Source: Cymodocea nodosa
Taxonomy: Eukaryota; Streptophyta; Magnoliopsida; Alismatales; Cymodoceaceae
Direction of reading: 5' to 3'
DNA: 64,000 nucleotides
NCBI GenBank assembly: GCA_036874045.1
Contig: CM072339.1
Span: 14,639,501 to 14,703,500, forward strand
Numbering within the stretch: the first letter of the stretch is position 1; the number at the start of each line of letters is the position of its first letter. A program made the position numbers and the translations under genes. Positions 1,346-53,218 of this stretch are shown in pieces. Under the pieces are notes generated by a model. That model searched no databases, had not been told where the DNA came from, and saw nothing but the letters and a program-made list of their open reading frames with translations.

Positions 1346-1495
1346 TTACTAATCATATATAGAAGTTCTTAGCCTAGATTTATATACTGATACTTTACTG
1401 AGTCGTTCATAACTCAATGCACAAAATAAGATATTTAAACCTTTTGCATTTAGAGTTTTATTTTCTTTTTCAATAACTGTCTAAGTATTATAAAG

Positions 1496-7798: not shown

Positions 7799-7936
7799 AA
7801 AGAAGATTTACTTTTTCTAACCAAACATTAACCAACATAGTAAGTCTATTGGTTGTCATTTTGAGTTACTATGTAATGTAATGTAATGGAGTCTACCTTG
7901 TTATGCTTTTGTGTGTTGTTTTGACTTTATAAAAAT

Positions 7937-17187: not shown

Positions 17188-17439
17188 AGTTTCTAATTGT
17201 TGTGATTCTATATTTAGCATCATAAAAACAAAAATTAACATTAATAATTAACTTAATACTATGCTCATTGAGTTAAGTAGTAACTCAATGGAATAAGTTG
17301 GTTGAGTTAAGTAATAACTCCATGAACCTAAGAACAATAAAACATATTTTTGTTATATGTTCAAAGTTCTCTATGTTTTGTTGTTTTTCTATTTTTTTAT
17401 AGTATACATATATATTATTTATAATAATTATATTACTTC
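17188..17439 (-). other. Leader between gag and F-box pseudogene
   Basis: This non-coding gap lies between the gag tail and the F-box ORF. It carries a TTGAGTTA/TAACTCAA array at about 17265-17335 and an ATATAG followed by AATCA just before the F-box start. The same layout is seen at 36536-36720 and 37267-37454. Confidence 0.5.
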
Positions 17440-18475
17440 ATTTTGCTTCTCTCCTATAGGAGGTATCAATTTTATTTACATTTCTATTTAAAGGATTCAA
17501 TATTAATTGACTAGGTAATCCTCTTGTAGGTTTAACATCGATTGGTTCTTTCATTATAGGTATATTTTTATTCATGTTTCGATTTTAGACTATAGTATTT
17601 TCAAATACATGATCTAAATGATTGTTCATGTTTTGAATTATCTTTTCTAATTTATTTATTCTAGCTCCTTGTTTTATTAATGCTTTATAACTTTGATTTT
17701 TATCATTTATATTCTCTCCTCCTTGGAAATTATTATTTCTCTAAGATAGATTTGAGTAATTTCTCTAATTAAAATTGTAAAAATTAGTAAAATTATGTCT
17801 TTAGTTTCTAGTATAAATAACATCTAAGTCATTCATGCTTGCATTTTGTTTTGCTAGCTTTTGATTTAGTAATAACTCTTCTATTTTCTTTGTTAATTCA
17901 CTTAATTTGACTTCAAACATAGTGCTCGAATCAATTTCATGCATTTCTCTAGGTCATACTTTTCTATCTCAAATAGTTTCAGCCAAGTTTTCCTATTAAG
18001 TAGTTTTTTTTGCAAAATTTTCTATGCTTCTTCACTACATAGTTTCAAAATTCTATTTTGATATGTAAATTCTAACAAATATTTTATTACAACATCTATA
18101 CCTTCATAAATTATACATTTTAATTGAGTTTTACTCATTGCATGATGTAGACATTAACTTAGTAAATCTTTAAATCTTTCAAAGTATTTCCAAAATGATT
18201 CTCCTTATTTTTGGCTACACATTAATATTTCTTTTTTCTTCTTAATTATCTAGTGAGTAGGATAATATTTTTCTAGAAAAATTGAAAAAAGTTCAATCCA
18301 CATAGAGATTGAATCAGGAGATAGAGTATATAGTAATTTCTTAGCTATATTTTTTAAAACAAAGAGAATATATCTAAATTTAATAGCATCTATACTCATA
18401 TTAGACATTCTCATCATTTGACAAATCTCATTAAATTCTCTAAAGAAATAATAAGTGTCTTCTCTTTCTAATTAA
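17440..18475 (-). pseudogene. gag: Degraded gypsy gag (retrotransposon gag domain)
   Basis: Minus-strand reading gives the plant retrotransposon gag signature in order: FREFNEICQMM, LSPDSISMWIELFSIFLEKYYP, then FWKYFERFKDLLSQCLHHAM. This matches the W-x-x-L-x8-FL-x-KYFP and ERFKDLL-x-CPHHG pattern of Athila/Tat gags. The tail (NFQGGENIN, then ARINKLEKIIQ, then PTRGLPSQ) is a coiled-coil-like region also present at the palindrome centre. In-frame stops are frequent. Gag directly abuts an LTR fragment, so the leader and primer binding site are deleted. The F-box pseudogene follows, with no pol between them. Confidence 0.7.
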
Positions 18476-33169: not shown

Positions 33170-33241
33170 AGCCAAATGTTTGGTTACCTATCACGACACC
33201 AGAAAACCTGATTGGATCTCTAACAACGCACCAGAAAAACT
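33170..33241 (-). promoter_or_regulatory. Two tandem primer-binding-site-like modules
   Basis: On the minus strand, just past the LTR end, are TTTTTCTGGTGCGTTGTTGG and, about 33 bp on, GGTTTTCTGGTGTCGTGATA. Both resemble a tRNA-Asp type site (TGGCGCCGTTGCC...) with changes that look like C-to-T decay. The same modules occur at 50618-50708. Confidence 0.5.
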
Positions 33242-34229
33242 TGGATTTGTTAACTTCTGTTTTTACTTAGTTAATTTATCTTTATGTCTATTCTTTTTTA
33301 GAAGTAAACAAATAACCTTTCACACAAATTAGATATTAATTCCAATTTATATTTTAATTGCAAGTGCATAGTGTCTATTGCATTAGTGTGCAAGTACAGG
33401 TCGATCTCATAGAGAATTGTTTAAGAATTGAGAACTATTCCGTTTGTAACAATCAAATTAATATCTTCAATAAGCCCTCCGTTGAGTTACAGTTAACTCA
33501 ACAGACAAAGTTCGTTAAGTTATGGCTAACTCAACGGACTAACCTCGTGGACATAAGTTAACTCCATGAGTCTGCCTTTCCTATTTGATACTGTTATTTA
33601 CAAAGGAATTCGACCAACTATTGGGCAGTTCCACAGATTGTAAATAACATCAATTAAGCTCTTTAATGTTAGTAAACATTGGATTTATCATTAAGTATAC
33701 TAACATTCAGATAATTCAAATAGTATCCACTACAATCTTTAAGTCTTTTGTACGAACTAATTTCAGTAAACTGTAAAACTAAAACAAACATAAAACAATC
33801 ACAACATTGACAAAGATAATATTAATCACGATACAACACAAACAATACAACACTCAAATACAAAATACAAACACAGATAAGTTGTTTTTGGTATTTTTGT
33901 TTTAATATGAACATGGAAATGGGCGAAAGGTGAAATGTAAAGTAATCTCAGTCGACAGTAAATACTTCCGTCACTACATGCGACGCGATTACACCACTGA
34001 AAATTAAACCACTTACAATTCTGTCTCCTCTCCCTATAGAATCGTGAGTCAAGAATTGCAAGATGATCTCCTCTTCAGCATACAGGCATCAACCCAAAGC
34101 CAAGGCTAGAAGCTTTACGATCTCCTGAAATATGAGTCGGTGCTTGGTGAAAATGGCTTCCCTTCCCACGACGCGATCACTCCTCACAGTGGTTGTCAGA
34201 CACTATGTTTGGCTCGGAATCGACCCGAC
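33242..34229 (-). mobile_element. Partial gypsy-family LTR (copy E, R-U5 part)
   Basis: It ends AAATCCA (minus strand) at 33242 and matches 50709-51700 almost word for word. At 34229 it joins 3' internal sequence, so the PPT and most of U3 have been deleted relative to the right arm. It closes the left arm of the palindrome. Confidence 0.75.
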
Positions 34230-34233
34230 ATCA

Positions 34234-35398
34234 AAATACAAAAAGCTTAAGTACCTATCTGCTCAAGTACAAAAGGCTCGTGATCAAACAAGTCAATAAA
34301 CTCTCAAAGTTTTTTTTTTTTTTCTTTCTTTCTTTTTTTCTTCTTTTTTTTCTTTTTTTCAAAATACAAAAACAAAACAAAACATTAATCACATACTATA
34401 TATGTATGTATTTCATTAATACAGATGTAGTAAACACCAATCTCATATAGTCCTACTTCTATCATTTATTGAAAATATGAATCCATAACAATAAGCTCAT
34501 TACTTTTTCTATAGTTTAATAAGATCTACACATAAATCATTCTACAAGTTTAATCAGTTAAATTAAATGTATCTTTAATCATATGTGTTTCATTTAATCT
34601 AGAATTCATATTTTAGCTCCTTCAGGACTTTAGATAATTTTTTTCATTAAGCATTCTGATTTCATTTTAAAATCGTGAAACTATTAAACTCACGAAATTC
34701 AGAAAAAAACATAAGATACTATATTTAGATTTGCATAAATAGTAAATTCTATAGCATCTTATATAGCCTTCTAAATATAACATTCAAGTAGTTACAATTT
34801 ATAAAAATTTTACAGTCTCAATTATCGGATATTTACAGCAAGTTCATAAAAAATTTTCAATTTCCACAAAACTTTGCAGTACCATTTTAATTCCTTTAAT
34901 TAACAAACTTACATGATTGTTACTTTAATTACCTCCCCCCCATACCTACATTTTGCATTGTCTTCAATGTAAAAGATTTGACAATAAATATAGTAATTGT
35001 AGCAGGCATGAATATAGTTTCGTTGATTTAGCACCTAACTCAACAAATGAGTTTAAATCTAAATTCAGGATAAGTAATCAATTACATACCTTGTTTCGTT
35101 TATATCTCCTTCTGCATATTCCGATTTTTGATTCTGAAGAACTTTTCATTCATAGATAAAAGCAAAATATATAACAAAATAACATTTAACAGATATTGAT
35201 AAATCAGTGTCTTGTGTGGAACCCAGACTCCTATGCCTAGTGGCTCACAAGCAAGCCAGTTGGATTCCCAAAATAGATACCAACAAACTAGATTGATATT
35301 TTGTTTTTTTTCTTTTATAAAATAAAATGAAAACTACATTTTAAAAAAAAATAAAATAAATGTAGAATACACACAACATTAAACACACAAAATCACAT
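34234..35398 (-). mobile_element. 3' untranslated internal region, left arm
   Basis: This matches 38595-39665. It contains the internal purine tract at 34931-34947 (complement ACCTCCCCCCCATACCT). The terminal PPT is lost in the deletion at 34229. Short ORFs here are shadows. Confidence 0.65.
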
Positions 35399-36535
35399 CT
35401 AAAGAACATGATTGAAAAGTAGAAACAAATGGAATAAACGTGTCAGTCCAAGCAAATTTTTAGGCATAATTTTTCTGGTTATTAATTCTATTTTAATGCA
35501 GTTCTTGTTCCTTCTTAATTTGTAAACGTGTAATATATTATAAATGCCAAATACAAGTGTATTACCATTAATGATATGAAATGCAGAAAGAGATCCTTTT
35601 CGATTCCAAGGTAATGTAGTAGTTTCTATTTCTACATCTATTTCAATATATTCCTCTTTCCACTTCCATTCATTTATGTCTTTCATAATCCATATTTGAA
35701 ATTTCATCAATTCATCCCACCATCTTATCAGACATAAAGTAGGATCATCATATTCATTATACCACATTCATATTTGAATTTTATCAAATTCTGCAGATGG
35801 TGGTTTAGCTATTTCTCTCGGTATAGGTAAAATTTCTATATATTCATCATAACTGTCTATGCTCACTATTTATAAATCAGATCCAAATGCTATTGATATA
35901 TCTGTGACTAGATATACATATCCATCAAGTATGACATGCAAGTTGTTAATTAATGATTTCTGGCCTAGATATATCATAATATTTTCAGTCCAAGATCTAT
36001 TTAGAAAATTATACACACTTAAGCGTAATTTTTCTCCTCAATTTCCTGTAGGTCTCCAATAATATAATTTTTTAGGAATGGTAGAATTTTTATCAGAAAA
36101 TTTTAAAGCCGACCCACAATTTACAATTGGTACTTCATATCTATTAGGTCTTCCTATATTCCATTCTTCTCTTGTTATAGGATTTCTTATCAAAATATCA
36201 GGTAATAGACTTGCATACCTTGGTCTGGCCCTGCATATGATTAATCCTTCATCCATCCCCATAATATGATCTATTCCTTCTAATGTGTTGGGTGAAATTC
36301 CAGTAGTTTCTTCCATATTTAGATATTCATGGCTAATTGAACTACGATTCAATGACCTCCATATGAATCCATCACTAATCTTAGTCATTTTTGCAGCTTG
36401 TAGTCCTTGAAAATATTTTTCTTCAATATAGTCTTTAATTTCCTTTGATACACAACACAGCCTACACAGATCTTTAGTTGACAAGTTACTCAGTACTTCT
36501 CTCAGTGCATCCAACAGTAATTGCATCAATTCCAT
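35399..36535 (-). pseudogene. Retrotransposon-borne F-box/FBA-like gene, copy 1
   Basis: F-box proteins are substrate-recognition subunits of SCF ubiquitin ligases. From ATG at 36535 the N-terminal 40 residues fit the F-box: LLLDALREVLSNLSTKDLC then RLCCVSKEIKDYI. An F-box-associated-like region follows: ILIRNPITREEWNIG (about residues 113-127), YYWRPTGNW, VILDGYVYLV, IVSIDSYDEYIEILP, and a tryptophan-rich RWWDELMKFQIWI block. The length of about 378 codons suits a plant F-box protein. There are in-frame stops at 36038-36040 (a W codon in the expected reading), 35870-35872 and 35768-35770, and a 1-nt deletion within about 25 codons of the end; otherwise one frame is kept. None of these defects is shared with copy 2. 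A conserved TTATACAG lies 9 bases before the ATG. Confidence 0.75.
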
Positions 36536-37012
36536 TTGTCGATTCTGTATAACACAAACAAAAATTTAGCAGAGACAAAAATTAACATAACTACTACACA
36601 CCCTCGTGGAGTTAAGGCATAACTCAACGGACTAAGTTCATTGAGTTAAGGACTAACTCTACAATACTATTAATTATAAATAAACATATATATATAGATA
36701 GTTGCTTCAGTTATGTTACTTCATTCAGCTATCCTCCCAGAAGAGGTATCAATTTCATTGACAATTCTATTGACAAGGTTAGGTATTGCTTGTACTGGCA
36801 ATCCTCTAGTAGGTCTAACTTCCATTGATTCCTTTTGTCTAAGTGGTATGTTTCTAATCTGATTTTGAATTGCAGCATTTCTAAATACAAAATCCAAACG
36901 ATTGTTTAATTGTTGGATTGTCTTTTCTAATTTCTCTATTCTAGATCCTTGTTCAAGTAATGCTTCATAACTTATATTCTTCTCATTTATATTTTCTCCT
37001 CCCTGGAAATTG
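36536..37012 (-). pseudogene. Gag tail and pre-F-box leader, left arm
   Basis: Minus-strand reading from the centre gives NFQGGENINEKNISYEALLEQ, then GSRIEKLEK and PTRGLP, the coiled-coil-like gag C-terminus also seen at 17440-17700. A leader follows with a TTGAGTTA/TAACTCAA array at 36605-36655. The N-terminal gag and all of pol are missing. Confidence 0.6.
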
Positions 37013-37266
37013 TAAGTTATGAAGGATTATTGGAACAAGGATCTAGAATAGAGAAATTAGAAAAGATAATCCAACAATTAAACAATCGTCTAGATTTTGT
37101 ATTTGGAAGTGCTGCAATTCAAAATCAAAATAGAAATATACCACTTAGACAGAAGGAACCAATGGAAGATAGACCTACTAGAGGATTGCCAATACAAGCT
37201 ATACCTAATCTTGTCAATAGAACGATCAATGAAATTGATACCTCTTCTAGGAGGATAGCTGAATGA
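37013..37266 (+). pseudogene. Gag C-terminal fragment, right arm
   Basis: The open frame at 37030-37266 encodes a coiled-coil-like segment (GSRIEKLEKIIQQLNNRLDF) and PTRGLPIQAIPNLVNR, ending in TGA. It matches the C-terminus of the gag at 17440-18475. Its 5' part is cut off at the palindrome centre. Confidence 0.6.
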
Positions 37267-37454
37267 AGCAGCATATCTGAAGCAACTATCTGTATGTATA
37301 TATGTTTTTATTTTTAGTTAATAGTATCGTAGAGTTAGTCCTTAACTCAATGAACTTAATTCGTTGAGTTATTCCTTAACTCCACGAGGGTGTGCAGTAG
37401 TTATGTTAATTTTTGTCTCTGTTAATTTTTGTTTGTGTTATATAGAATCAACAA
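37267..37454 (+). promoter_or_regulatory. Leader of F-box copy 2 with motif array and putative splice acceptor
   Basis: It holds a TTGAGTTA/TAACTCAA array (about 37325-37390), then T-rich sequence ending TTATATAG (37438-37445), nine bases before the ATG. The same T-rich run and (C/T)AG precede F-box copies 1 and 3. This could be a 3' splice site for a subgenomic message; that is inference. Confidence 0.4.
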
Positions 37455-38594
37455 ATGGAATTGATGCAATTACTATTGGATGCACTAAGGGAAGCATTGA
37501 GTAACTTGTCAGCTAAAGATCTGTGTAGGCTGTGTTGTGTATCAAAGGAAATTAAAAACTGTATTGAAGAAAAATATTTTCAGGGACTACAAGCTGCAAA
37601 AATGGCTAAGATTAGAGATGGATTCATATGGAGGTCATTTAATCGTAGTTTAAATACCCATGAATATCTGGCTATGGAAGAAACTACTGGAATTCCACCC
37701 AATGCATTAGAATGAATAAATCATATTATGGGGATAGATGAAGGATTAATCATATACAAGACGAGACCAAGGTATGCAAGTTTATTATTACCTAATATTT
37801 TGATAAGAAATCTTATAACAAGAGAAGAATGGAATATAGGAAGACTTAATAGATTTAAAGTACCAACTGTAAATTGTGGGTCATCTTTAATATTTTCTGA
37901 TAAAAATTCTACAATTCTTGAAAAATTATATTATTGGAGATCTACAGGAAATTGGGGTGAAGATTTACGCTTAAGTGTGTATAATTTTCTGAATAGATCT
38001 TGGAATGAAAATATTATGATATATCTAGGACAGAAATCATTAATTAACCAAACACATGTCATACTTGATGGATATATATATCTAGTCACAAAGATATCAA
38101 TAGCATTTGGATCTGATTTATACATAGTGAGCATAGATAGTTATGATGAATATATAGAAATTTTACCTGTATCGAGTGATATAGCTAAACCACCATCTAC
38201 AGAATTTAATAATATTCAAATAGGAATGTGGTATAATGAAGAAGATGATCCTACTTTATGTTTGATAAGATGGTGGGATGAACTGATGAAATTTCAAATA
38301 TGGATTATGGAAGACATTAACGAATGGAAGTGGGAAGAGAAGTATATTGAAATAGATGTAGAAATAGAAACTACTACATTACCCTAGAACCAAAAAGGAT
38401 CCCTTTCTGCATTTCATATCATTAATGGTAATACATTTGTATTTGGAATTTATAATATATTACATGTTTACAAATTAAAAAGGAACAAGAACTGCATGAA
38501 AATAGAATTAATAGTAAGAAGAACTATGCCTAAAAAGTTTGCTTGGACTGATACATTTATTCCATTTGTTCCTACTTTTCAATCATGTTCTTAA
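37455..38594 (+). pseudogene. Retrotransposon-borne F-box/FBA-like gene, copy 2
   Basis: The best-preserved copy. One frame runs 380 codons from ATG at 37455 to TAA at 38592-38594, interrupted only by TGA at 37713-37715 (GGA in copy 1) and TAG at 38385-38387 (TGG in copy 1), with no frameshift. The F-box is at residues 5-40 (LLLDALREALSNLSAKDLC, RLCCVSKEIKNCI). The rest is F-box-associated-like: NLITREEWNIGR, YYWRSTGNWGEDLRLSVYNF, THVILDGYIYLVTKI, IVSIDSYDEYIEILP, RWWDELMKFQIWIMED. It lies in sense after the gag tail and before the 3' untranslated region, PPT and LTR. Activity is unlikely unless the stops are bypassed. Confidence 0.78.
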
Positions 38595-40312
38595 GCTGTA
38601 ATTTTGTGTGTTTAATGTTGTGTGTATTCTACGTTTAAGTATAAATAAAAAAAATAACAAAATATCAATCCAGTTTGTTGGTATCTGTTCTGAGAAATCA
38701 ACTGGCTTGCTTGTGAGCCACCAGAGGCATAGGAGCTTGGGTTCCATACAAGACACTAATTTATCAATATCTGTTAAATGTTATTTTGTTTTATATTCTG
38801 CATTTATTTGTGAATGAAAAGTTTTTCAGAATAAAAAATCAAATATGCAAAAGGAGATACAAACAAAACAAGGTATGTAACTGATTACTTATCCTGAATT
38901 TTAAATCAAAGAAACTGTATTCATGTCTACTACAATTACTGTATTTATTGTCAAATCTTTTACATTGAGGACAATGCAAAATGTAGGTATGGGGGGGGGG
39001 GTAATTAAAGTAACAGCCATGTAAGTTTGTTAATTAAAGGAATTAAAATGGCACTGCAAAGTTTTGTGGAAATTGAAAATTTTTATGAACTTACTGTAAC
39101 TATTCGATAATTGAGACGGTAAAATTTTTATAATCTGTAACTGCTTGAATGTTATATTTAGAAGGTTATATAAGATGCTATAGAATTTACTATTTATGCA
39201 AATCTAGATATAGTATCTTATGTTTTTTCTGAATTTCATGAGTTTAATAGTTTCACGATTTTAAAATGAAATTATAATGCTTAATGAAAAATCAATAAAT
39301 TATCTGAAGTCCTGAAGGAGCTGAAATGTGAATTCTAGATTAAATGAAACACATATGATTAAAGATACATTTAATTTGACTGATTGAACTTGTAGAATGA
39401 TTTATGTGTAGATCTTATTAAACTATAGAAAAAGTATGAGCTTAATGTTATGGATTCATATTTTCAGTAAATGATAGAAACAGGACTATATGAGATTGGT
39501 GTTTTACTTCATCTGTATTAATGAAATTCGTACATATATAGTATGTGATTAATGCTTTGCTTTGTGTGTATTTTGATTGAAAAAAAAAAAAAAAGAGGGA
39601 AAAAAAAAATTGAGAGTTTATTGACTTGTTTGATCATGAGTCTTTTGTACTTGAGCAGATAGGTATGTAAGGATTGTTAACCTGAAAAAGGACTCTTGAA
39701 ATCTGACAACCTAAGATCCTAATTAGATATGGGATTGTTGACTAAAAGCTCGTTACATGGGTACATTAGAAAGCTCTTGTATGATTCAAGCTTGTCAAAT
39801 TAACTTTTAAAGTAAAAAAAAAAAAAAAACATATACTGTTCTGGAAAGATACAAGTGTGTTGTGAAATACAGATATCTTATGAATCGAGTATATTTTTTG
39901 TTATCTAGAATTGCTATAATATGAATCTAGAATTGACTTTTGAAGTTGTTTTAATAGAGATACAATTCTTTATTCTATTTGTCTTAATCATATTGAATTG
40001 GATTGTACTTTGATTCGTATGTTGTTGAAATTTCTTCTAGAAATCTTATTGGAAAATTCAAGATGGTAGATGATTAAAAGAAGAACAAACGATAATATAA
40101 TTAACACCTATGTGATGATGATATACTTTGTATGTAATTGACATATATTCTAAGTATATTTGCAGGTTGATTACTGAAACTTATAGAATATATATTCTTA
40201 TGCTGAATAGAAGAAAAAACAAGAAGAGGAATTAATTCTAGCACTTTTTGATAGACCAATTAATTAGATCTTAGTTTGCTAAGGGACTAGCAAAATTTAG
40301 GTATGGGGGAAG
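38595..40312 (+). mobile_element. 3' untranslated internal region with internal and terminal PPTs
   Basis: About 1.7 kb follows the F-box stop. An internal tract AGGTATGGGGGGGGGGG lies at 38985-39001, and the terminal PPT AGGTATGGGGGAAG at 40299-40312 directly precedes the LTR. An A-rich run lies at 39580-39611. No coding was seen. Confidence 0.7.
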
Positions 40313-40635
40313 TGTTTAGAATGAAAAAGTGCATATTATTAACGGTTAAATGATGGTTAATTGCATAATATTTAGCTTATCATATAAGAATTAAGCCATT
40401 ATGTTATAATTACACTGTTATATGCTTTAATTGAACAATTTGTTTAATTTTGAGGAATTAATGTCAATTTAGTACATTTCTGAACTATCGCTAAGTTGTA
40501 GGTTGTGAAATTCTTAAGTTTCCAAATTTTCTGATATTTCGAACAGTTATGTTTAACAGATCGAATATGTCAGATAGTTATGTTTATATTGCCGAATAGT
40601 TATGTTTTGAAAGAATATTTTATTATTTCCAGAAG

Positions 40636-41047
40636 TACACATGTCGAAACCATAATGCATGACTTAAGTGAACTTTCAGTGAGTTATCTATAACTATCCG
40701 AAATTGCAGCTGGGCATCGAACAGTTATACTTGTAACCCTCCGAAATCTCTTTTTATTTATAAAATAGCTATGGACACGTGTCATGTTCTGGTAAAGTGA
40801 CTTAAGTGGATTTTCGGTGAGTTAGCTGTAACTATTCGAAATGTATCTGAGCATTGGATAGTTAGACCTGTAACTCTCCGAAATGGGTATTTTATTATTA
40901 AACTGTTGCTGACACGTGTCGAGATCTGGTAGATTTACTTAAGTTATATATTGGTGAGTTAGCTGTAACTATTCGAAATTGCAGCTAAGCATCGGATAGT
41001 TAAGTTTATAAGTATCCGAAATGCACCTAAGCATCGGATAGTTAAAT
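40636..41047 (+). repeat. U3 tandem repeats (about 137 bp) with G-box/ABRE-like palindromes
   Basis: Three units start around 40636, 40774 and 40911. Each has ACACGTGTC-type sequence, then GACTTAAGT, TCGGTGAGTTA, a pair of inverted GGATAGTTA/TAACTATCC words and a T-rich end. ACACGTGTC contains the CACGTG core bound by plant bZIP/bHLH factors. The minus-strand LTR at 50709-52906 has matching units (G-boxes near 52263, 52421 and 52539). Confidence 0.7.
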
Positions 41048-41273
41048 TTATGCACATGTTTTATAATTAAATCAACGAAGAAAGTCCGTTGAGTTATCTA
41101 TAACTCCACAGATTATCTATTTTCTAATATGCCACTGTAGCGGTTGCGAAAACAGGACAGTTGGAAGAAAAACCACGATTGCATGTATTGCATAGGGAAA
41201 AGAAATCATCGCTGTTGATATGAATGAAGGAAATCCAACCGATCATTCAAGCAGAAGCAGTTACTACTGAAGA

Positions 41274-41285
41274 AATATAAAAGAA
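41274..41285 (+). promoter_or_regulatory. LTR TATA box
   Basis: AATATAAAAGAA lies between the U3 repeats and the conserved leader. It is conserved at the same place in the LTRs at about 3185, 6664 and 53574, and in complement near 51865. It probably sets the start of the genomic RNA. Confidence 0.5.
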
Positions 41286-42454
41286 AAGAAGAAAAAGAAA
41301 TCCAGTGTGTGATCGATGGACGGGTAGTGTATATAGAGGAGGAGCACTAAGCTTTCTACAGACAATATCGACGATTCTTCGAAGTATCACACCAACCATC
41401 GTTACCACCACTATATCCACCATAATCACCAACCATCGGAGGTCTGTGAGAATACTTTCTTAATGTCGGGTCGATTCCGAGCCAAACACATTGCCTAACA
41501 ACCATTGTGAGGAGTGATCGCATCACGGGAAGGGAAGCCATTTTCACCAAGCGCCGACTCATATTTTAAGAGATTATAAAGCTTTTAACCTTGGCTTCGG
41601 GTTGATGCCTATATGCTGAAGAGGAGATCATCTTACAATTCTGGACTCGCGATTCTATAGGGAGAGGAGACAGAATTGTAAGTGGTTTAATTTTCAGTGG
41701 TGTAATCGCGTTGCAAGTAGTGTCGGAAGTATTTACTATCAAGTGAGATTACTTTACATTTCACCTTTCGCCCATTTCCATGTTCATATTAAAACAAAAA
41801 TACCAAAAACAATTTATCTATGTTTGTATGTTGTATTTGAGTGTTGTATTGTTTGTGTTGTATCGTGATTAATGTTATCTTTGTTAGTGTTGTGATTGTT
41901 TTATGTTAGTTTTAGTTTTACAGTTTACTGAAATTGGTTTGTTCAAAAGACTGAAAGATTTTAATGGTTATTGTTTGAATTATCTGAATGTTAGTATTGC
42001 TTAATGATAAATCCAGTTTTTACTAACTTTAAAGAGCTTAATTGATGTTATTTATAATCTGTGGAATCACCCAATGGTTGACTGAATTCCTCTGTAAATA
42101 GCAGTACTAAAAAGAAAAGACAGGCTCATGGAGTTAACTTAAGTCCACGAGGTTAGTCCGTTGAGTTAGCCATAACTCAATGAACTTTATCCGTTGAGTT
42201 AACTGTAATTCAACGGAGGGCTTATTGAATATATAAATTTGATTGTTAACAAACGGATAATTCTAAACTTTTTAGCAATTCCCTGTGGGATCGACCTGTA
42301 CTTGCATACTGATATAATAGACATTGTGCACTTGCAGTTAAAGTACAAATTGGAATTAATATCTAAATTGTATTAAATGTTGTTTGTTTACTTCTAAAAG
42401 AAAGAATAAGGATAAAGATAAATTAACTAAGTAAAAATAAAAGTAACAAATCCA

Positions 42455-43175
42455 AGTTTTTCTAGTGTAGTGCTGGGAAAACGCAAACATGTACCACTAT
42501 TAATTTCAAATTTTGGTAACCGCTAAACCGACGAAGTTTCGTTTGTGGTTAAAAGAATAAACGTTCTGCTTAATCCACGAACTAACCTTGTTGAGTTACA
42601 GATAACTCAACGAAACAAAGTCGATTGCTATTGCTAACTCCGCGAACTAACTTCGTTAAGTTAAAGATAACTCAACGGAGTGACCTTATATTAAATTACT
42701 AACCTCGTGGAGTTAAGTTTAACTCAACGAACTTACTTCGTTCAGTTAACACTTAGCAACCTCTAAGTTTTACTGCTCGTAAGTACCTCTCTGTTTTTTT
42801 TCTTTTTCATTCTACTAACTAAAATAAAGTTAAATCTATGTCATTAATGCATCATTCTAATCAAAATTCATTTAAGTTTGAACATTATATAAATATTTAA
42901 CTTGCAGGTCATTTTATGTTATGTAGAATTTACATTTTACCTTGCAACATACAGAAATTTTCAAGCATTTATCCTGTCATTCAACAAATTGTAAATCTGT
43001 TAAACATTCATTCATAATATTCCACAATTTATATAACATTCAATTCATTTCATCATTCTAAACACACATGAAAAGTATATCTGAAAATTTATATTCATTC
43101 ATATGAATCGATTTACATTACAAATATATCAGACATTTTTCATACAATTATATACAAGTAGATGAACAATACAAT
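42455..43175. other. Primer-binding-site remnant, motif arrays and AT-rich spacer
   Basis: Immediately after the LTR, AGTTTTTCTAGTGTAGTGCT (42455-42474) resembles a decayed primer-binding-site module. From 42565 to 42760 is one of the densest TAACTCAACG/CGTTGAGTTA arrays, with at least eight alternating words. The rest is AT-rich 3' flank of the minus-strand accessory ORF. No gene was seen. Confidence 0.5.
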
Positions 43176-45380
43176 TTAATCTCTATTCCTAAGTTCATCT
43201 ACTTCCTTCTGAAGTTTTTCTAATTGTAGCTCTAATTGATTAATTCTCTCTACAGCTCCTATAATTCCTCCAGAAGGTACAGCTATCTCTGCAGCTACAA
43301 AATTTTTGTACTCTTTCACTGAAATGGTTCTTGATCTAATCTTTTTTTATGCCCATTTCGTGAAATCAATACAATCCACCATCAGTAGTGGAATCAAATC
43401 TCCATAAAACAATTTCTTCTTTACTGTTTTTAGCTTGGAGATAAAAACTGTAGACCAATTTATTGGAATTCTATTTACAACTGCAAACGTGGCCCATTTG
43501 ACAAATTGACTCAGTTCTATGTCATGGCCTTGTCATTGATAGACATTCTTAATTAAAATGTTGGCTATCATGTGTGCTTTACCATTTAAATGTTTCAGTC
43601 TATTTAATAAAGGCACGTCAGGATTGATAGTCAAACTGTCCTTGATTTCCTGTTCTGTCTATTCAACGGTAGTTGTACTTTCCAAAATTTCCTACCCTTC
43701 ATTCTTTAATCCAAAAATGTTGTGGAGAAGCTCTGATGTTATCTGTACATCTGCTTCCTCCACGTACCAATTAATTGTCCTTCTTCTTATCTCAAATTTG
43801 CATAAAAATAGGACACTAGATTCTCATATACTGTATGCCCTCTTTCTTGAGAAATAAAATTCAGTAGACCTTGGAATTCAAATAATTCTTTGATTTCTTG
43901 CATTCCATCCTAATTTACTGGTCTATTATATATAACATCATAACCGCTAATCTCTTGATATTTATTATAAGCTTCCTGACTCCAAAAATGTACTTCATTC
44001 AAAACTGTTGTTTCAGTCGGGTCAGGAATGTGACTTTGTTGTTCCAAAGGGGTTTATTCTTGATCTTCCTCTACCATAGGCTAAACTTGAACATGTTCTA
44101 CAGTTTCCTGAATTTTTACTTTTGCTTTTGTCTGTGGTGGTGAGCTGGCAAAACTCTCCACTCTATCTTGAATTGTTTCATTAAATTCAGTAGAATCTGC
44201 AAAGTCATTTTTGTCCAAATGGCTTCGTTCAGCTTCTTCTTCATTTTCAGTTCTTTCTTCTTCCTCCTAACTACCAATCTGCTTTGTCAGTGTTCTTTCT
44301 GATTCTGTAGCAGATTGGGATGGAGTCACGAGCAATTCAGTGTCTACCTTAATTTCTGTTTTTTCTTCTTGTACAGGCTGCAGACTAATTTCAACTTGAT
44401 TTTCTTCTTTTCTTTGCTCTTGCTACTGCTGCTCCTGCTCCTCAGAATCGGATAGCAGGTTTATAAAAATTGGCTCCATAGGCCCTGTTGCTATTGGTAC
44501 TTCAATTTATCTTTTTGACACTCAAGCACTATCTCTTTTCCTTTCCTTCGTGTGATTAATTGTGCCTGGTCTTCCTCTTCTTCTTCTGAGATTAAATCTA
44601 AAAACAAAGGCTCTGCACGCCTTTGAGCCATAAGTACTAGCTCTTCTTGTTTAATTTTTCCAATAATTGTTGGTCTTGAAGGACCAACTTCAGCTTCTTT
44701 TGTAGCAAATCTGACAGCAGTTCTGGCAGTAGCTTCTTGATGTTGTTCCACTTTAATTTTATATTAGGCTTGCAATTTCTCTGCAGCCCTCTTTTTGCGT
44801 AGTGCATCAAACACTAGATGTGCTTTGGCTACTACTAAATATTTTGATTTTCCTTGGTTTCTTCCAACTTAAACCAGTGCTTGAAATTCTTTTAACTCTT
44901 CTCAATCGAAGGCCCCAATATTTTTGCTCCTGCCATTAGCTTAAATGGTGGAACTGAAGGTCCTAGCTGCTGTTCCTCAAGAATAGGTCTTTCAGCAGTC
45001 GGCTCCTCTTGTTATTCCTCTACTTGTTGTTGTCGCCTTATTGCACCCCTTGCACGACCAACAATGCACTTTTTGAACCACAATCTGGTTTTGCGTTTGA
45101 TTAGTTCTAGGGCTACTTCATTGTTCGGACTTATTTTTCTCTCTTTGCTTAAAGTAATTTCTGTCGCTACTTTTATTTTTGTTTCTACTATTTGGGGTAT
45201 TTGTATACCCAAATCAACCAAAAATGTTCTCAAGTTGAAGAGTTCTGATTCTACCTTTTGTAGCTCTTTCTCTCTTGTCGAATTCTGAATCTTCTACCGC
45301 GTGTGCCATTCTTCTAATTCCTTTAGTAACTATGTTGTGTCAACTGCATCTTCCCAGAACTCAGGTGTCATCTTCCTCAT
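43176..45380 (-). pseudogene. Accessory ORF with putative plant transposon protein domain, copy 2
   Basis: On the minus strand from ATG at 45380 (MRKMTPEFWEDAVD) to TAA at 43176-43178, about 730 codons. The N-terminal coiled-coil-like part reads REKELQKVESELFNLRTFL. A long Glu/Gln-rich middle follows (about 44150-45000). The domain then has LFEFQG, SYFYANL, INWYVEEADVQITSELL, IFGLKNEG, LLNRLKHLNGKAHMIA, INWSTVFISKLK, KKLFYGDLIP. The C-terminus is a coiled coil (INQLELQLEKLQKEVDELRN). FYANL plus WYV(E)..D...T.ELL.IFGL is the plant transposon-protein pattern. At least one frameshift (near YANLR) and several stops are present. It is read in the same direction as pol and downstream of it. Confidence 0.68.
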
Positions 45381-45927: not shown

Positions 45928-47079
45928 TTAGTAAGTAAAGCTTGAGTAGTCCACTACTCTAACTTCTTCTATAATTCCAAAGGAGCTTTTTGGTGTTTTC
46001 AGAATAAGTCTAAGTCTTTGTACATTTAATTTAAATATATTCTGATTTTTAGGATTTTCAATTTCAATAGCTCCATAAGGATAAATATTTCGAACTATGT
46101 AAGATCCTGCCCATCTAGATCTTAATTTTCCTGAATGGTTATGGAGCCTAGCCATATAAAGATATACTTTTTGTCCTATTTCAAAGCTTTTTGGAATAAT
46201 TTTCCTATAATGCCAGAATTTCATTTTCTCTTTTTCTCTTACAGTTTTCGAATAAGCTTCATTTCAAAATTCTTCTAATTCAATTAATTACATTTTCCTA
46301 TTTTCAGAAGCTTGATTTAAATTAGTATATAGAGTTTTTAATGCCCAATAAGCTTTATGTTCTATTTCAGCTGGTAAATGACAACTTTTTCCATATACTA
46401 GCCTAAAAGGTGACATACCTAAGCTTGTCTTATAAGTAGTTCTATAAGCCCAAAGTGCATCTATCAATCTATTAGCCCAATCTGTTCTAGTAGGATTTAC
46501 TACTTTTTCTAAGATTAACTTAATTTGTTTGTTTGCACTTTCTACTTGTCCACTTGTTTGCGGATGATATGATGTTGCAATTTTGTGGTTTACTCCATAT
46601 TTCTTCATTAAGACTTCAAAACTTCTATTACAGAAATGAGTTCCTCTATCACTAATAATAGCTTTAGGTATTCCAAATCTAGCAAATATATCAGTTCTTA
46701 TAAATTGTATTACCACTTTGTTGTCATTAGTTTTTATAGGAATAGCTTCTATCCATTTAGATACATAATCCACCCCCAACAATATGTAATTAAATTGATT
46801 AGACAAAGGAAATGGACCCATAAAATCTATTCCCCACACATCAAAGATTTCAACCTCAACAATAGGATTAAGAGGCATCATATTCCTCTTTGATATTCTT
46901 CCTATTTGTTGACATCTTAAACAACTTAAGCAATATTTATGAGCATCTTTGAATAGTGTTGGCCAATAAAATCCACATTGCAGAATTTTTGCAGCAGTTT
47001 TCCCTGAACCAAAATGCCCTCCACAAGCTTGGTCATGACAAAAGACAATATGCTCGGATATTCTGTTTCTGGAACACAC
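45928..47079 (-). pseudogene. pol: Gypsy integrase (pol C-terminal region)
   Basis: Integrase inserts the cDNA into the genome. The zinc-binding HHCC domain is visible ([22 protein letters not shown]). It is followed by the catalytic core with D in WGIDFMGP, D in IISDRGTHF and E in [10 protein letters not shown], spaced as in D,D-35-E enzymes. The C-terminal part (46224-45928) has GKLRSRWAGSYIVRNIYPYG, matching the GPF/Y-type module of Athila/Tat integrases. A stop near 46285 separates the two parts in one frame. The C-terminus ends before a gap and the accessory ORF. Confidence 0.85.
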
Positions 47080-47393
47080 CTCCTTAAAACTAGATCAAGA
47101 CATTTCTTAAATAAGTATGGGTCTTCCCAATAGTAATATTTTACTCTTGAGAAAAATAATTTCTTATCCTATGTATTCCAATCCTTAGGTGTTAAATCAA
47201 TAACTAAGTAATTAACTATGTCTGCATACCAAGGTATTGTGTTGATGGTCATTAATTGTTCATCAGGAAAATTATCCTTAATATCAATATTTGATTTTTC
47301 TATTTGTAATCTTGATAAATGATCTGTTACTACATTCTCACAACCTTTTTTATCTTTAATTTCTAGATCAAATTCTTGTAATAATAATATCCA

Positions 47394-47675: not shown

Positions 47676-48427
47676 CTAATCAAGTGCTTGAATTGTAGGA
47701 GTTGAAATTAAGCTAGTTTTAAGTTTGAAAAATGCTTCCTTGCAATTTTTATCAAAGTTAAATGGAACATCTTTTAATAGATTAGCTAAAGGTCTAGCTA
47801 TCTTGCTAAAGTCTTTAATAAATCTTCTATAAAAATCAGCATGTCCTAGAAATGATCTAATATCTTTTACTGATTTAGGTTCTGGTAGATTAGAAATTAC
47901 TTCTATTTTAGCTTTATCTACTTCCAACCCTTTCTTAGAAACAACATGCCCTAAGACTATTCCTTGTTTAACCATGAAGTGACATTTTTCCCAATTTAGC
48001 ACTAGATTTTTTTCCACACAGCGTTTTAATATTAGGTCTAAATTTTTTAAACAAACTTCATATGAATTGCCATATACAGTAAAATCATCCATAAATATTT
48101 CTAAAAGTCTTCAGTCATTCCAATAAATATGCCTTGCATACACCTTTGAAAGGTAGTTGGTGCATTGCATAATCCAAATGACATTTTCTTAAAAGCATAA
48201 GTTCCATTAGGACAGGTGAAAGTTGTTTTCTCTTGATCCTCTAATGCTACTGGAATTTCATTATAACCTGAATACCCGTCTAGGAAATAAAAATATTCTT
48301 GCCCTACTAATCTTTCCAGCATTTGATCTATAAAAGGTAAGGGAAAATGATCTTTCCTAGTCACAGCATTCAGCTTTCTATAGTTTATACATACTCTCCA
48401 ACCTGATTGAATTTTAGTAAGTATCAC
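47676..48427 (-). pseudogene. pol: Gypsy reverse transcriptase
   Basis: Motifs are in order: GWRVCINYRKLNAVTRKDHF, PLPFIDQMLERL, FLDGYSGYNEIP (catalytic D), KTTFTCPNGTYAFKKM, SFGLCNAPTTFQRCM, then after a frame change MDDFTVYG with the catalytic D-D pair, VLGHVVSKKGLEVD and DIRSFLGHADFYRRFIKDFS. The wording is close to Athila/Tat (non-chromovirus) elements. A frameshift near 48095 splits it. Confidence 0.88.
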
Positions 48428-48684
48428 GTCTTGACTTTCATTTCTAATAACTGTTAATCTTGATTTCTTGGGAACTACATGGATTGGGCTAACCCACGAG
48501 CTATCAGAAATCGGATAAATTATGTCATTATCTAATCATTTTACTATTTCATTCTTGACTACTTCTTCAAGGTTTGGATTTAATCTCCTCTCAGGAATTC
48601 TAACAAGTTTAGCATTTTCTTCTAAATATATGTGGTGACAGCATAAAGTTGAACTTAACCCTTTTATATCAGTCATAGTCCATC

Positions 48685-50232: not shown

Positions 50233-50568
50233 TTATAGTTTAATTGGTTGACTTCTTATTGCTGACATATAAAGTATACTACGCTCCAGTCTGTCATACC
50301 TATCCCAAACTTCAGTGTCTCTCAACATATTACACATTCTATACTGACCATTAGTTGGGTAAACTATAGGATTCTCATACTCGGCTCTATTATATTGAGG
50401 ATAATTCATTTGTTGTTCATGGGATCTAACCATCTGCAAACGTCTCAGTTTCAAACAGTCAGAAATGTCATGACAATCAGAATTGCAGAATTCACATATG
50501 CTAACTACAGGTTTTAGAAATCTTTGAGCATAAGCATATGCCATATTCTCAATTACAGAAGAAAACAA
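50233..50568 (-). pseudogene. gag: Gag C-terminal fragment with CCHC zinc knuckle
   Basis: CEFCNSDCHDISDC fits the C-x2-C-x4-H-x4-C RNA-binding knuckle of retroelement Gag. Only about 100 bp separate it from the primer-binding-site modules, so the main gag domain (as at 17440-18475) is missing here. Fragments between 49758 and 50210 continue the gag-pol linker in other frames, with stops. Confidence 0.7.
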
Positions 50569-50617: not shown

Positions 50618-50708
50618 TTTCCCAGCAATGACGCCATAGAACTTGCTTGGTTACCTAGCACGACACCAGAAAACCTGATTGGATCTCCAACAACGCACCA
50701 GAAAAACT
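50618..50708 (-). promoter_or_regulatory. Three tandem primer-binding-site-like modules
   Basis: Directly after the LTR on the minus strand there are three modules about 33 bp apart: TTTTTCTGGTGCGTTGTTGG, GGTTTTCTGGTGTCGTGCTA and AGTTCTATGGCGTCATTGCT. Each resembles the tRNA-Asp-type site TGGCGCCGTTGCC seen intact at 54753-54770. Confidence 0.55.
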
Positions 50709-52906
50709 TGGATTTGTTAACTTTTGTTTTTACTTAGTTATTTTATCTTTATGCCTATTCTTTTTTAGAAATAAACAAACAACCTTTCACACAAATTAGA
50801 TATTAATTCTAATTTGTATTTTAACTGCAAGTGCACAGTGTCTATTGCATTAGTGTGCAAGTACAAGTCGATCTCATAGAGAATTATTTAAGAATTGAGA
50901 ACTATTCCGTTTGTAACAATCAAATTAATATCTTCAATAAGTCATCCGTTGAGTTATAGTTAACTCAACGGACAAAGTTCGTTAAGTTATGGCTAACTCA
51001 ACGGACTAACCTGGTGGACTTAAGTTAACTCCACGAGTCTGCCTTTCCTATTTAATACTTCTATTTACAGAGAAATTCAGCCAACCATTGGGCGGTTCCA
51101 CAGATTGTAAATAACATCAATTAAGCTCTTTAATGTTAGTAAGCATTGGATTTATCATTAAGCATACTAACATTTAGATAATTCAAACAATATTCATTAA
51201 AATCTTTAAGTCTTTTGAACGAACTAATTTTAGTAAACTGTAAAACTAAAACAAACATAAAACAATCACAACACTGACAAAGATAACATTAATCACAATA
51301 CAACACAAACAATACAACACTCAAATACAAACACAGATAAGTTGTTTTTGGTATTTTTGTTTTAATATGAACATGGAAATGGGCGAAAGGTGAAATGTAA
51401 AGTAATCTCAGTCAATAGTAAACACTTCTGTCACTACATGTGACGCGATTACATCACTGAAAATTAAACCACTTACAATTCTGTCTGCTCTCCCTATAGA
51501 ATCGCGAGTCCAGAATTGCAAGATGATCTCCTCTTCAGCATACAGGCATCAACCCGAAGCCATGGCTAGAAGCTTTACGATGTCCTGAAATATGAGTCGG
51601 TGCTTGGTGAAAATGGCTTCCCTTCCCGCATCCTCACAATGGTTGTCAAGCACTGTGTTTGGCTCGGAATCGACCCGACATCAAGAAAGTATCCTCACAG
51701 ACCTCCGATGGTTGGTGATTATGGTGGTGGTAATGATGGTTGGTGTGGTACTTCAGAGAATTACCGATACTATCTGTAGAAAGCTCGGTGCTCCTCCTCT
51801 ATACACACTGGCCATACCCATCGATCACACACACACCCCTTTACTTCTTTTTCTTCTTTTCTTTTATATTTCTTCAGTGGTAACTGCTTCTGCTTGAATG
51901 GTCGGTTGGATTTCCTTCATTCATATCAACGACGATGATTTCTTCTCCCAACGTGATATGTGCGATCGTGGTTTTTCCTTCCAACTGTCTTGTTTCTACA
52001 ACCGCTATAGTGGCATATTAGAAAATAAATAGTCCGTAGAGTTACAGATAACTCAATAGACTTGCTTTATTGATTTAACTATAAAACATGTGCATAAATT
52101 TAACTATCCGATGCTCAAGTGCATTTCGAATACTTACAACTTTACTATCCGATGCCTAGATGCATTTCGGATACTTACAACTTAACTATCCGATACTCAA
52201 GTGCATTTTGGATAGTTACAGATAACTCACCGGTATATAACTTAAGTAAATCTACCAGATCTCGACACGTGTTAGCAACAGTTTAATAATAAAAGAAACA
52301 TTTCGGAGAGTTATAGGTCTAACTATCTGATGCCTAGATGCATTTCAGATAGTTAGAGATAACTCACCAAAAATCCACTTAAGTCACTTTCCTAGAACAC
52401 AACACGTGTCCACAGCTATTTTATAAATAAAAGGAGATTTTGGAGAGTTACACATATAACTATCCGATGCCCAACTGCAATTTTGGATAGTTATAGATAA
52501 CTCACCGAAAGTTCACTTAAGTCATGCATTATGGTTTCGACACGTGTACTTTAGGAAATAATAAAATATTCTTTTAAAACATAACTGTTCGGTAGTTTAT
52601 ACATAACTATCCGATACATGTTCAGTATGTTATACATAACTATTTGAAATATGTTCGGTATGTTAAACATAATTGTCCGAAATATCAGAAAATTCGGATA
52701 CTTAAAAATTTCACAGCCTGTAAGTTACCAACAGTTCAGAAATGTACTAAATTAACATTAATTCCCCAAAATTAAGCAGTAATTCTAATTAAAGCTTATA
52801 ACAGTGTAATTATAACATAATAACTTAATTCTCATATGATAAGCTAAATATTATGCAATTAACCATCATTTAACCGTTAATAATATACACTTTTTCATTC
52901 TAAACA
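50709..52906 (-). mobile_element. Full-length gypsy-family 5' LTR (copy G)
   Basis: The 2198-bp LTR begins TGTTTAGAATG at 52906 and ends AACAAATCCA at 50709 (minus strand). It is followed by primer-binding-site modules and then gag-pol, so it is the 5' LTR of the pol element. It has three U3 G-boxes, a TATA box near 51865 and the conserved leader. No matching minus-strand 3' LTR lies at the left; instead a plus-strand LTR (40313-42454) faces it. Confidence 0.85.
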
Positions 52907-53218
52907 CCAAACTTGATGTCATCAAATGACATATCGATGGTCAAATTTGATATTTCATTTATCATAGTTTGAGGCTCCATGCCACAAAAAAAAATCCTAA
53001 TAGGCAACATTGGTATGTCATCTATCCAATTTCAGATTGGATAGAAATTAAATTTCTTTTTAACTAACTCCAAATGCATGCCCCTACCTTGGGCCCCTCC
53101 CTTATAAGAATCAAATGGGATGTCGTTACTTAGTGATGGTATGTCATTTGATTAATTCACCCCCCTACAAGAATCAAATGGAATGTGGTTACTAGGTGAT
53201 GGTATGTCATTTCTTTTT
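52907..53218. other. Unassigned spacer with about 62-bp tandem duplication
   Basis: No gene. From about 53096 to 53215 a unit containing 'aagaatcaaatgg', 'atgt', 'gttact' and 'aggtgatggtatgtcattt' occurs twice in tandem. A TATGTCAT word recurs at least four times across the spacer. Confidence 0.6.

What the first reader, a model, noticed from the sequence alone, without database searches (positions are those of the whole stretch)
35399..38594. An LTR-retrotransposon family that carries an F-box gene after gag
The ORFs at 36535-35399 and 37455-38594 have a clear N-terminal F-box (LREVLSNLSTKDLC, RLCCVSK) and an F-box-associated-like remainder. A third copy (17187-14343) lies directly downstream of a recognisable gag in sense orientation. 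All three sit between the gag tail and the 3' untranslated region/PPT/LTR, where pol or env would be. F-box proteins select targets for ubiquitin ligases, so such an element might target a host silencing or replication factor. I know of no retrotransposon family with this layout; that is a gap in my knowledge, not a search result.
Basis: partly seen in the sequence, partly recalled or inferred. Interest (0 to 1): 0.88.

Follow-up and report, generated by a model that had tools for sequence, protein, structure and literature searches.

The report
Retrotransposon family carrying an F-box gene
An abundant family of plant jumping genes carries its own F-box gene, the kind of gene cells use to mark chosen proteins for destruction, placed after its gag gene and apparently made from a spliced message; what it destroys is unknown.

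Summary
All three window copies have a Pfam F-box above cut-off, right after a Ty3-type gag. In the unnamed host genome (374.6 Mb) the gag-tail+F-box unit recurs: 41 of 42 reported matches cover it, two being the window's own (40 best of 4870 candidates scored). It sits inside elements that have pol: a TSD-bounded 16.6 kb copy and two more stretches read integrase–ORFX–gag–F-box on one strand. The window's pol and copy c2 lie between 5-bp repeats TTTGG/TTTGG. So the capsid-type gag lies downstream of pol, in an intron-like GT...AG stretch. Two fetched copies lack exactly that stretch, and the spliced junction occurs at 200 places (reversed-pattern control 0), so spliced RNA was evidently reverse-transcribed. 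In-frame dN/dS is low in divergent pairs (0.19-0.38), but the stop-codon test depends on the tree. I read it as a spliced accessory gene making an SCF substrate receptor; SKP1 binding and target are untested. I found no published parallel in the open-access library searched. Interest 0.83; new variant of a known kind.

The parts
52907..52911 (.). 5-bp target-site duplication (TTTGG on the minus strand) at the 5' end of the window's main element
50644..52906 (-). 5' LTR (TG...CA) of the main element
   Evidence: 94.2% identical over 1035 sites to the 3' LTR
50619..50638 (-). primer-binding-site-like sequence (TATGGCGTCATTGCTGGGAA), 5 bases after the LTR; other copies read TGGCGCCGTTGCCGGGGAA
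   Evidence: tRNA-Asp assignment is recalled
50236..50544 (-). start of ORF1: ATG, then a CCHC zinc-knuckle-like stretch (motif read by eye), with no capsid (PF03732) match
   Evidence: no Pfam hit here or in the same part of L024
48688..49347 (-). protease region of ORF1 (no Pfam hit in this broken copy; Asp_protease_2, sub-cut-off E 0.0014, in L024)
47679..48535 (-). reverse transcriptase (two open pieces)
   Evidence: PF00078 E 1.5e-16 and 3.1e-8
46291..47094 (-). integrase
   Evidence: PF00665 E 2.1e-15, PF17921 E 3.7e-11
43100..45290 (-). ORFX, broken; its relative in L007 has a weak, sub-cut-off PF20167 match
36724..37011 (-). tail of gag, just upstream of F-box copy c2
   Evidence: tblastn with L009 gag, 80% identity
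36532..36555 (-). splice-acceptor-like sequence TTATACAG|AATCGACAAATGG before c2
35399..36535 (-). F-box copy c2 (broken: 3 in-frame stops, late frameshift)
   Evidence: PF00646 E 3.5e-8; stops
33177..34234 (-). 3' LTR of the main element, lacking its 5' part
33172..33176 (.). 5-bp target-site duplication (TTTGG) at the 3' end of the main element
37015..37263 (+). tail of gag upstream of F-box copy c1 (inverted second copy)
37435..37458 (+). splice-acceptor-like sequence TTATATAG|AATCAACAAATGG before c1
37455..38594 (+). F-box copy c1 (broken: 2 in-frame stops)
   Evidence: PF00646 E 4e-7; stops
40300..40312 (+). polypurine tract GGTATGGGGGAAG
40313..42489 (+). 3' LTR (TGTTTAG...AAACA) of the inverted second copy
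17441..18471 (-). gag (capsid domain) of the third copy
   Evidence: PF03732 E 1.7e-10; tblastn
17193..17215 (-). splice-acceptor-like AATATAG|AATCACAACAATTAG before c3
16486..17196 (-). F-box copy c3, 5' two-thirds
   Evidence: PF00646 E 1.4e-6
14369..14777 (-). F-box copy c3, 3' third, after a 1.7 kb insertion
   Evidence: tblastn
10182..11808 (-). 3' LTR of the third copy, after GGTATGGAAGAAG|TGTTTAG; the low-coordinate end is the last base of detected similarity, not a fixed LTR end
   Evidence: start position counted by hand from the print

Best explanation
This is a high-copy Ty3/gypsy LTR-retrotransposon family of a plant that encodes an F-box protein as a standing accessory gene. Layout: 5' LTR - PBS - ORF1 (zinc knuckle, protease, RT, RNase H, integrase) - ORFX - gag capsid gene - F-box gene - PPT - 3' LTR. 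SHOWN: this order on one strand in one TSD-bounded element, and most of it in two further stretches; an intron-like stretch (GT...AG) holding the gag gene; its exact absence in 2 of 16 copies examined, with the joined sequence at 200 places by pattern. SUPPORTED BUT NOT SETTLED: coding selection in the family's history. INFERRED: LTR-driven full-length RNA serves ORF1 and is the genome. Splicing out about 1.56 kb joins an upstream exon with an in-frame ATG (MESFRL-NRQ-MELM...) to the F-box frame, giving a protein of about 388 residues. Its F-box would dock on host SKP1, and its remaining ~330 residues would choose a target for SCF ubiquitination. The likeliest target is a host factor that limits the element, such as an RNA-silencing component, as some plant-virus F-box proteins do; a target of the element's own (Gag) is the main alternative.
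For: F-box over the Pfam cut-off in 5 of 5 copies scanned (c1, c2, c3, L007, L009; best E 3.8e-10 in L009). Gag or gag tail directly upstream in 13 of 16 F-box copies examined. Genome search with gag tail+F-box: 41 of 42 reported matches cover the query to within 2 bases, on 15 contigs, 39 of them outside the window (only the 40 best candidates were scored, which favours complete matches). Integrase + ORFX + gag + F-box in order on one strand in L024/L007, L009 and L031. TSDs: window TTTGG/TTTGG, L007 AGTAT/AGTAT, L009 AGTGT/GGTGT, i.e. 2 of 3 perfect. Splicing: donor GACTG|GTATGT and acceptor ACAG|AATC in L007; L035 and L036 read GACTG|AATC exactly; 200 places, control 0. Acceptor AG kept in 7 of 9 aligned copies, donor GT in 4 of 5. 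Selection: median dN/dS 0.43 in frame against 0.565 and 0.73 in the other two (44 pairs), and 0.19-0.38 in the 9 pairs with c3; in frame no stop position is shared by more than 4 of 16 copies, while the shifted frames have 38 and 42 positions with a stop in more than half of the ingroup copies. Gag and F-box distances track each other, r 0.92 (0.76 without c3).
Against: No SKP1-binding test or target; the C-terminal part has only sub-cut-off FBA matches and no PDB relative; the fold attempt failed (pLDDT 31). No RNA data: splicing is inferred from genomic junctions, and the 200 places may descend from very few spliced ancestors. 13 of 16 copies have an in-frame stop. In close pairs the coding frame is not distinguished (for example c1-L009 dN/dS 0.80 in frame against 0.26 and 0.43 off-frame). 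The stop-codon test (2 internal, 16 terminal branches, p 0.007) reads recurrent stops as parallel hits: 5 ingroup positions recur, and if each were one shared event the count would be 5 against 9 and the test fails (p 0.79); 2 of those 5 carry different stop codons, so are independent. L035 lacks RT and ORFX by non-intron deletions, so F-box retention there may be hitch-hiking. L013 has a truncated gag with no F-box match in the 1.8 kb that follow. Gag's own expression is unexplained.
Confidence: 0.6

Rival explanations
1. Passenger: a host F-box coding sequence was once captured between gag and the 3' LTR and has since been copied without doing anything for the element, as with the gene pieces in maize Bs1.
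For: Gene capture by plant LTR elements is well known (PMC13317346 and PMC3726574, passages seen). 13 of 16 copies have an in-frame stop. Close pairs look near-neutral, and the stop-codon test fails if recurrent stops are shared by descent.
Against: Low dN/dS in divergent pairs (0.19-0.38 with c3); conserved acceptor, an in-frame exon-1 ATG, and gag-less spliced copies still carrying the F-box.
Confidence: 0.24
2. Self-regulation: the F-box protein turns over an element product (for example Gag or integrase) and so limits copy number or times particle assembly, rather than attacking a host factor.
For: F-box and gag adjoin, and the junction seen in L035 and L036 removes gag from the message that carries the F-box.
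Against: No direct evidence; the spliced copies keep the F-box, where there is no gag in cis to regulate.
Confidence: 0.12
3. The three copies are one host F-box gene (family) duplicated together with TE flanks.
For: c1 and c2 are indeed one inverted duplication.
Against: TSD-bounded elements contain it; 39 places outside the window join gag tail and F-box; 3 of 20 evenly spaced samples of one contig hold copies.
Confidence: 0.02
4. Composite origin: the element is a fusion of a pol element that lost its 5' capsid gene and a second gag-carrying element, the fused form then multiplying; the F-box came with the second partner. This concerns origin rather than present action.
For: 6 of 6 ORF1 starts found have a zinc knuckle but no gag match on their side of pol (in L012 pol itself was not found in the stretch). 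Window copy c3 runs from LTR-like sequence straight into gag and F-box without pol. Template-switch fusions of LTR elements are described (PMC1950507, abstract seen).
Against: No LTR match over 120 bases lies between ORFX and gag in L007 or L009; a leftover PBS there was not searched for; c3 may simply be a deletion.
Confidence: 0.3

Closest known systems
Athila / OTA clade of plant Ty3/gypsy elements with a sense extra ORF between pol and the 3' LTR (Athila4, Bagy-2, Cyclops; named in PMC6317226 and PMC7264820)
   Same: Ty3 order of RT-RNase H-integrase, long element, extra sense ORFs after integrase, PBS type (recalled), weak PF20167-like ORFX; a spliced message is reported for barley Bagy2 (PMC7264820, passage seen).
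   Different: The survey PMC6317226 gives the Ty3/gypsy order as GAG-PROT-RT-RH-INT (passage seen); here the capsid gag is 3' of pol and inside an intron-like stretch, and an F-box gene follows it. Membership in the clade was not tested with a tree.
Gene-capturing LTR elements (maize Bs1; [quoted passage not shown]
   Same: Host-type coding sequence carried inside an LTR element.
   Different: Transduced aORFs are described as present in one or a few copies (PMC7264820, abstract seen); here the gene is a standing part of a high-copy family with its own splice acceptor.
Plant-virus F-box(-like) proteins: polerovirus P0, nanovirus CLINK, crinivirus p22
   Same: A selfish element encodes its own F-box protein that could use host SKP1 (starts of abstracts, passages).
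   Different: RNA or ssDNA viruses, different proteins; in our case SKP1 binding and target are untested.
TR-GAG non-autonomous elements
   Same: Copies such as c3, read alone, show LTR-like sequence, gag and an extra ORF without pol.
   Different: The family has pol; c3 looks like a deleted derivative. TR-GAG was seen only in a search listing.

Membership tests
Ty3/gypsy LTR retrotransposon | LTRs with TG...CA ends, PBS, PPT and 5-bp target-site duplication | tested here: met
   TSD perfect in 2 of 3 elements, 4 of 5 bases in the third
Ty3/gypsy LTR retrotransposon | RT-RNase H-integrase order | tested here: met
Ty3/gypsy LTR retrotransposon (canonical) | gag 5' of pol | tested here: not met
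   6 of 6 ORF1 starts lack a gag match; gag lies after ORFX in L007, L009, L031
Athila clade (OTA) | RT phylogeny within Athila, no second RNase H, no chromodomain | tested here: inconclusive
   no chromodomain or significant second RNase H in the Pfam scans of the pieces given (RVT_3 only E 0.059); no RT tree was made
Athila clade (OTA) | Athila-type 3' ORF (PF20167-like; the link to Athila is recalled) | tested here: inconclusive
   PF20167 E 0.0017, 18.7 bits against a 45-bit cut-off
F-box protein | F-box domain over Pfam's cut-off | tested here: met
   5 of 5 copies scanned
F-box protein | SKP1 binding / SCF assembly | not testable with these tools
   none; structure model useless (pLDDT 31)
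F-box protein with FBA/kelch substrate domain | recognisable C-terminal substrate domain | tested here: inconclusive
   FBA_1 E 0.04-0.077, under cut-off, in c1 and c2; none in L007 at E 0.1
env-like sense aORF class | sense ORF between pol and 3' LTR | tested here: met
env-like sense aORF class | made from a spliced message | tested here: inconclusive
   exact intron-like junction in genomic copies; no RNA examined
env-like sense aORF class | transmembrane or envelope features | not tested
   an F-box protein is not expected to have them
TR-GAG non-autonomous element | no pol | tested here: not met
   pol lies in the same element

The most novel reading that the evidence does not exclude
A plant LTR retrotransposon organised like a complex retrovirus: pol first, capsid gene and accessory gene behind it, the accessory gene made from a spliced message and encoding an SCF substrate receptor that removes a host defence protein, for example a silencing factor. 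This would be a Vif/P0-like weapon held in what are probably thousands of genomic copies.
Probability: 0.35. Interest if true: 0.94.

Novelty: new variant of a known kind. Interest (0 to 1): 0.83.

Why it matters
For many extra genes of plant LTR retrotransposons the function is not known. An F-box points to one testable biochemical route: SKP1 binding and degradation of one target. If the target is a silencing or DNA-repair factor, it would show a retrotransposon using the host's ubiquitin system against its host, as some viruses do. The capsid gene 3' of pol and inside an intron-like stretch also bears on how such elements balance Gag against Pol. Because copies are many, annotation pipelines may count them as host F-box genes.

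Tried and rejected
Considered and rejected: (a) host gene with random TE flanks: TSDs and genome-wide contiguity. (b) Non-autonomous gag+F-box element lacking pol, my own view: overturned by L007, L009 and L031. (c) LTR starting at the first G-run, giving 3.5 kb LTRs, as I assumed up: corrected. (d) Palindrome made by self-primed reverse transcription of one RNA: c1 and c2 differ by 8% with dN/dS 0.50, so two parents seem likelier; left unexplained. (e) Deletions of RT and ORFX in L035/L039 as further splicing: the ends are not GT...AG.

Led nowhere: fold of the F-box protein (pLDDT 31); PDB searches (0 hits; 3 chance hits, E 0.92-1.6); protein-database searches with the F-box (0 hits; the RT control gave 7995, so plant proteins are held, but the word-seeded search can miss diverged F-box proteins); IMG/VR scan (4 pattern matches, 0 relatives); Rfam at gathering threshold and tRNA (none). 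The count of unspliced junctions was asked 10 times and never answered, so the spliced fraction is unknown. The protein search of the own genome for host relatives of the F-box was asked twice and not answered, so the capture source is unknown.

Results against my reading: 2 of 16 copies have no gag upstream (spliced) and 1 (L024) is truncated there. L013 has a truncated gag and no F-box match after it; L012 and L027 are rearranged or deleted copies, L027a having LTR, only the tail of ORFX, then gag and F-box, with no pol match. L009 and L027b have lost the acceptor AG and L031 the donor GT. Gag's frame +1 also shows an internal/terminal syn/nonsyn difference (p 0.0027, opposite direction), so that test alone is weak.
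Full report
WHAT THE WINDOW HOLDS. The window is AT-rich DNA with nested Ty3/gypsy elements; it is C7:14639501-14703500 of an unnamed 374.6 Mb genome in 28 contigs. That it is a plant rests on the retroelement's nearest named relatives, not on a name. Three F-box copies exist: c1 37455-38594(+), c2 36535-35399(-) and c3 17196-16486 plus 14777-14369(-). All three pass Pfam's F-box cut-off; the C-terminal F-box-associated match is below cut-off. Gag (PF03732, E 1.7e-10) lies directly upstream of c3, and gag tails adjoin c1 and c2. All three window copies are broken by stops. c1 and c2 are arms of an inverted repeat, 34246-39671.

ONE ELEMENT IN THE WINDOW. The pol on the minus strand (RT, integrase) has a 5' LTR at 52906-50644 flanked by TTTGG. 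A truncated LTR in the same orientation ends at 33177 and is followed by TTTGG. The two LTRs are 94.2% identical over 1035 sites (K2P 0.061). So pol and c2 belong to one integrated element of about 19.7 kb on the minus strand, into which an inverted second copy of the gag-tail–F-box–LTR stretch (c1 and LTR 40313-42489) has been built. The window element's own gag is missing apart from its tail, so pol–gag contiguity is seen only in the other copies.

THE FAMILY IN THE GENOME. I took 20 stretches of 10 kb at roughly 1.5 Mb steps on contig C1; 3 of 20 hold an F-box copy (L007, L009, L012). Of 5 further stretches from 9 to 16 Mb of C1, 2 hold copies (L027 two, L031 one). Extrapolation to thousands of copies is rough. 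The tool's loose first look gave 4219 and 4870 candidates, of which only 150 and 40 were scored. A DNA query spanning gag tail and F-box gave 42 matches: 41 cover it to within 2 bases on 15 contigs (two are the window's c1 and c2), and one is a 61-base piece; because only the best candidates are scored, complete matches are favoured. Six places picked by me from the 150-row PF00646 list were all this F-box (6 of 6, 82-89% identity over the best stretch; gag tail upstream in 4, spliced in 2); the picks were not random. One of them (L034) has a fully open 379-codon frame.

LAYOUT. In L024+L007 (abutting), L009 and L031 integrase, ORFX, gag and F-box follow one another on one strand, with RT before and LTR after in the first two; in L031 RT lies outside the stretch and the F-box is cut. 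L007's element runs from C1:7993790 to 8010425 (16,636 bp) with TSD AGTAT on both sides and LTRs 96.1% identical. L009's element has AGTGT/GGTGT and LTRs 94.9% identical; its 5' LTR is interrupted, so the 5' flank is less certain. At the 5' end ORF1 begins soon after the PBS with a zinc-knuckle-like stretch (motif by eye). In 6 of 6 such starts (window, L005, L012, L014, L022, L024) no gag match lies there. The capsid-type gag (PF03732, E 2.8e-17 in L009) is a separate gene of about 395 codons after ORFX. The canonical Ty3/gypsy order GAG-PROT-RT-RH-INT (PMC6317226, passage seen) is thus not met. Other copies are deleted or rearranged: L012 has an inverted LTR against gag, L027a has no pol match, L013 has a truncated gag without F-box.

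SPLICING WRITTEN INTO THE GENOME. In L007 and L009 GCTTCAGACTG is followed by GTATGTAATT, and in L007 the F-box ATG is preceded by a T-rich run and ACAG|AATCGACAA. L035 and L036 join GCTTCAGACTG directly to AATCGACAAATGG, dropping about 1559 nt with the entire gag frame (L007 4137-5695, counted by hand). The junction is intron-like to the base; one-base sliding is possible because of a shared G. The pattern occurs at 200 places with at most 2 mismatches (96 forward, 104 reverse; reversed pattern 0); among the matches whose letters were shown both AATCGACAA and AATCAACAA occur. The simplest reading is that spliced RNA has been reverse-transcribed and amplified; the number of independent events is unknown. 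Upstream of L035, RT and ORFX are also missing, but those ends are not intron-like. The junction puts an exon-1 ATG in frame with the F-box (MESFRL|NRQMELM; frame seen).

SELECTION. With 10 copies, 44 pairs: median dN/dS 0.43 in frame, 0.565 and 0.73 in the two other frames; the 9 pairs with the distant c3 0.19-0.38; close pairs up to 0.99, where the coding frame is often not the lowest. On a 16-copy tree rooted by c3, root branches left out, new stop codons number 2 on internal and 16 on terminal branches (p 0.007); off-frame 27/45 and 24/39 (p 0.44, 0.59); syn/nonsyn 89/153 internal against 92/240 terminal (p 0.023). For gag the stops are 1 against 18 (p 0.0023). These counts treat recurrent stops as parallel. 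Of 14 ingroup stop positions 5 recur (codon 311 in four copies); counted as one inherited event each, the contrast vanishes (p 0.79). Two of the five carry different stop codons in the two copies, so are independent, and 13 codons are mostly TGG, one change from a stop. Even so, the frame itself is plainly kept: no stop position is shared by more than 4 of 16 copies, against 38 and 42 positions with a stop in more than half of the ingroup copies in the shifted frames. Gag and F-box distances agree (r 0.92, 36 pairs; 5 of 5000 label permutations as high; r 0.76 without c3), so they travel together.

HOW IT PROBABLY WORKS. See Best explanation. Shown: domain, position, integration, intron-like junction. 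Supported, not settled: selection. Inferred: SKP1 docking, target degradation and the benefit to the element. Precedents for F-box(-like) proteins in parasites of plants are viral: P0, p22, CLINK (starts of abstracts in the listing, passages).

NOVELTY. Searches in the open-access PMC library listed no paper that, by title and start of abstract, treats an F-box gene as a resident of an LTR retrotransposon family or gag 3' of pol. The word F-box does not occur in the main text of the aORF review PMC7264820 (part 1 of 3 read, term search in 107), the Retand study PMC11963269 (term search), the REXdb survey PMC6317226 (term search) or the rice/sorghum capture survey PMC3726574 (term search); the gene-capture review PMC13317346 shows 0 for F-box in the count and 0 for ubiquitin. 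Supplements could not be read, subscription papers are not held, and an F-box extra ORF could hide in supplementary tables. I therefore call it a new variant of a known kind: an LTR retrotransposon with a sense accessory ORF between pol and the 3' LTR.

Noticed in passing
34246-39671 and 42489/42490: The second copy (c1) sits head-to-head with c2 with only ~38 bases between the arms, and its LTR end (...AAACA) is joined directly to the ORFX-gag spacer of the main element: an integration-like end on one side, a palindrome centre on the other. Mechanism unexplained.
   Followed up: partly
1-7801: Three LTR-bearing units in a row in the same orientation (47-1340, 1513-4117, 4122-7801), consistent with elements sharing LTRs; F-box/UTR remains also lie just upstream of the 5' LTR of the L007 element (L024 2204-5590).
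   Followed up: partly
15529-15693, 33476-33541, 42155-42220, 45562-45660, 50943-51008 and others: A ~33-base, partly self-complementary motif (TCCGTTGAGTTA...TTAACTCAACGGA-like) recurs in LTRs and spacers; one repeat family lists 17 copies.
   Followed up: no
C3, C26, C28 and other places of G000: Several PF00646 places have identical scores on different contigs, and 6 of 6 places that I opened were retroelement copies, so an unmasked F-box gene count of this genome would be inflated.
   Followed up: partly
20325-20723 (+): Open stretch that looks by eye like part of ORFX, on the opposite strand next to c3; no Pfam hit.
   Followed up: no
L022:5088-6785 (-): Long open frames that look by eye like a Ty1/copia-type RT, next to the L009 element's 5' LTR.
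   Followed up: no
62450-62908 (+): Exon-like frame that by eye resembles a plant sugar-phosphate/nucleotide-sugar transporter N-terminus; no Pfam hit for the stretch given.
   Followed up: no
60070-60533: 464-base CT repeat giving long spurious open frames on both strands.
   Followed up: no
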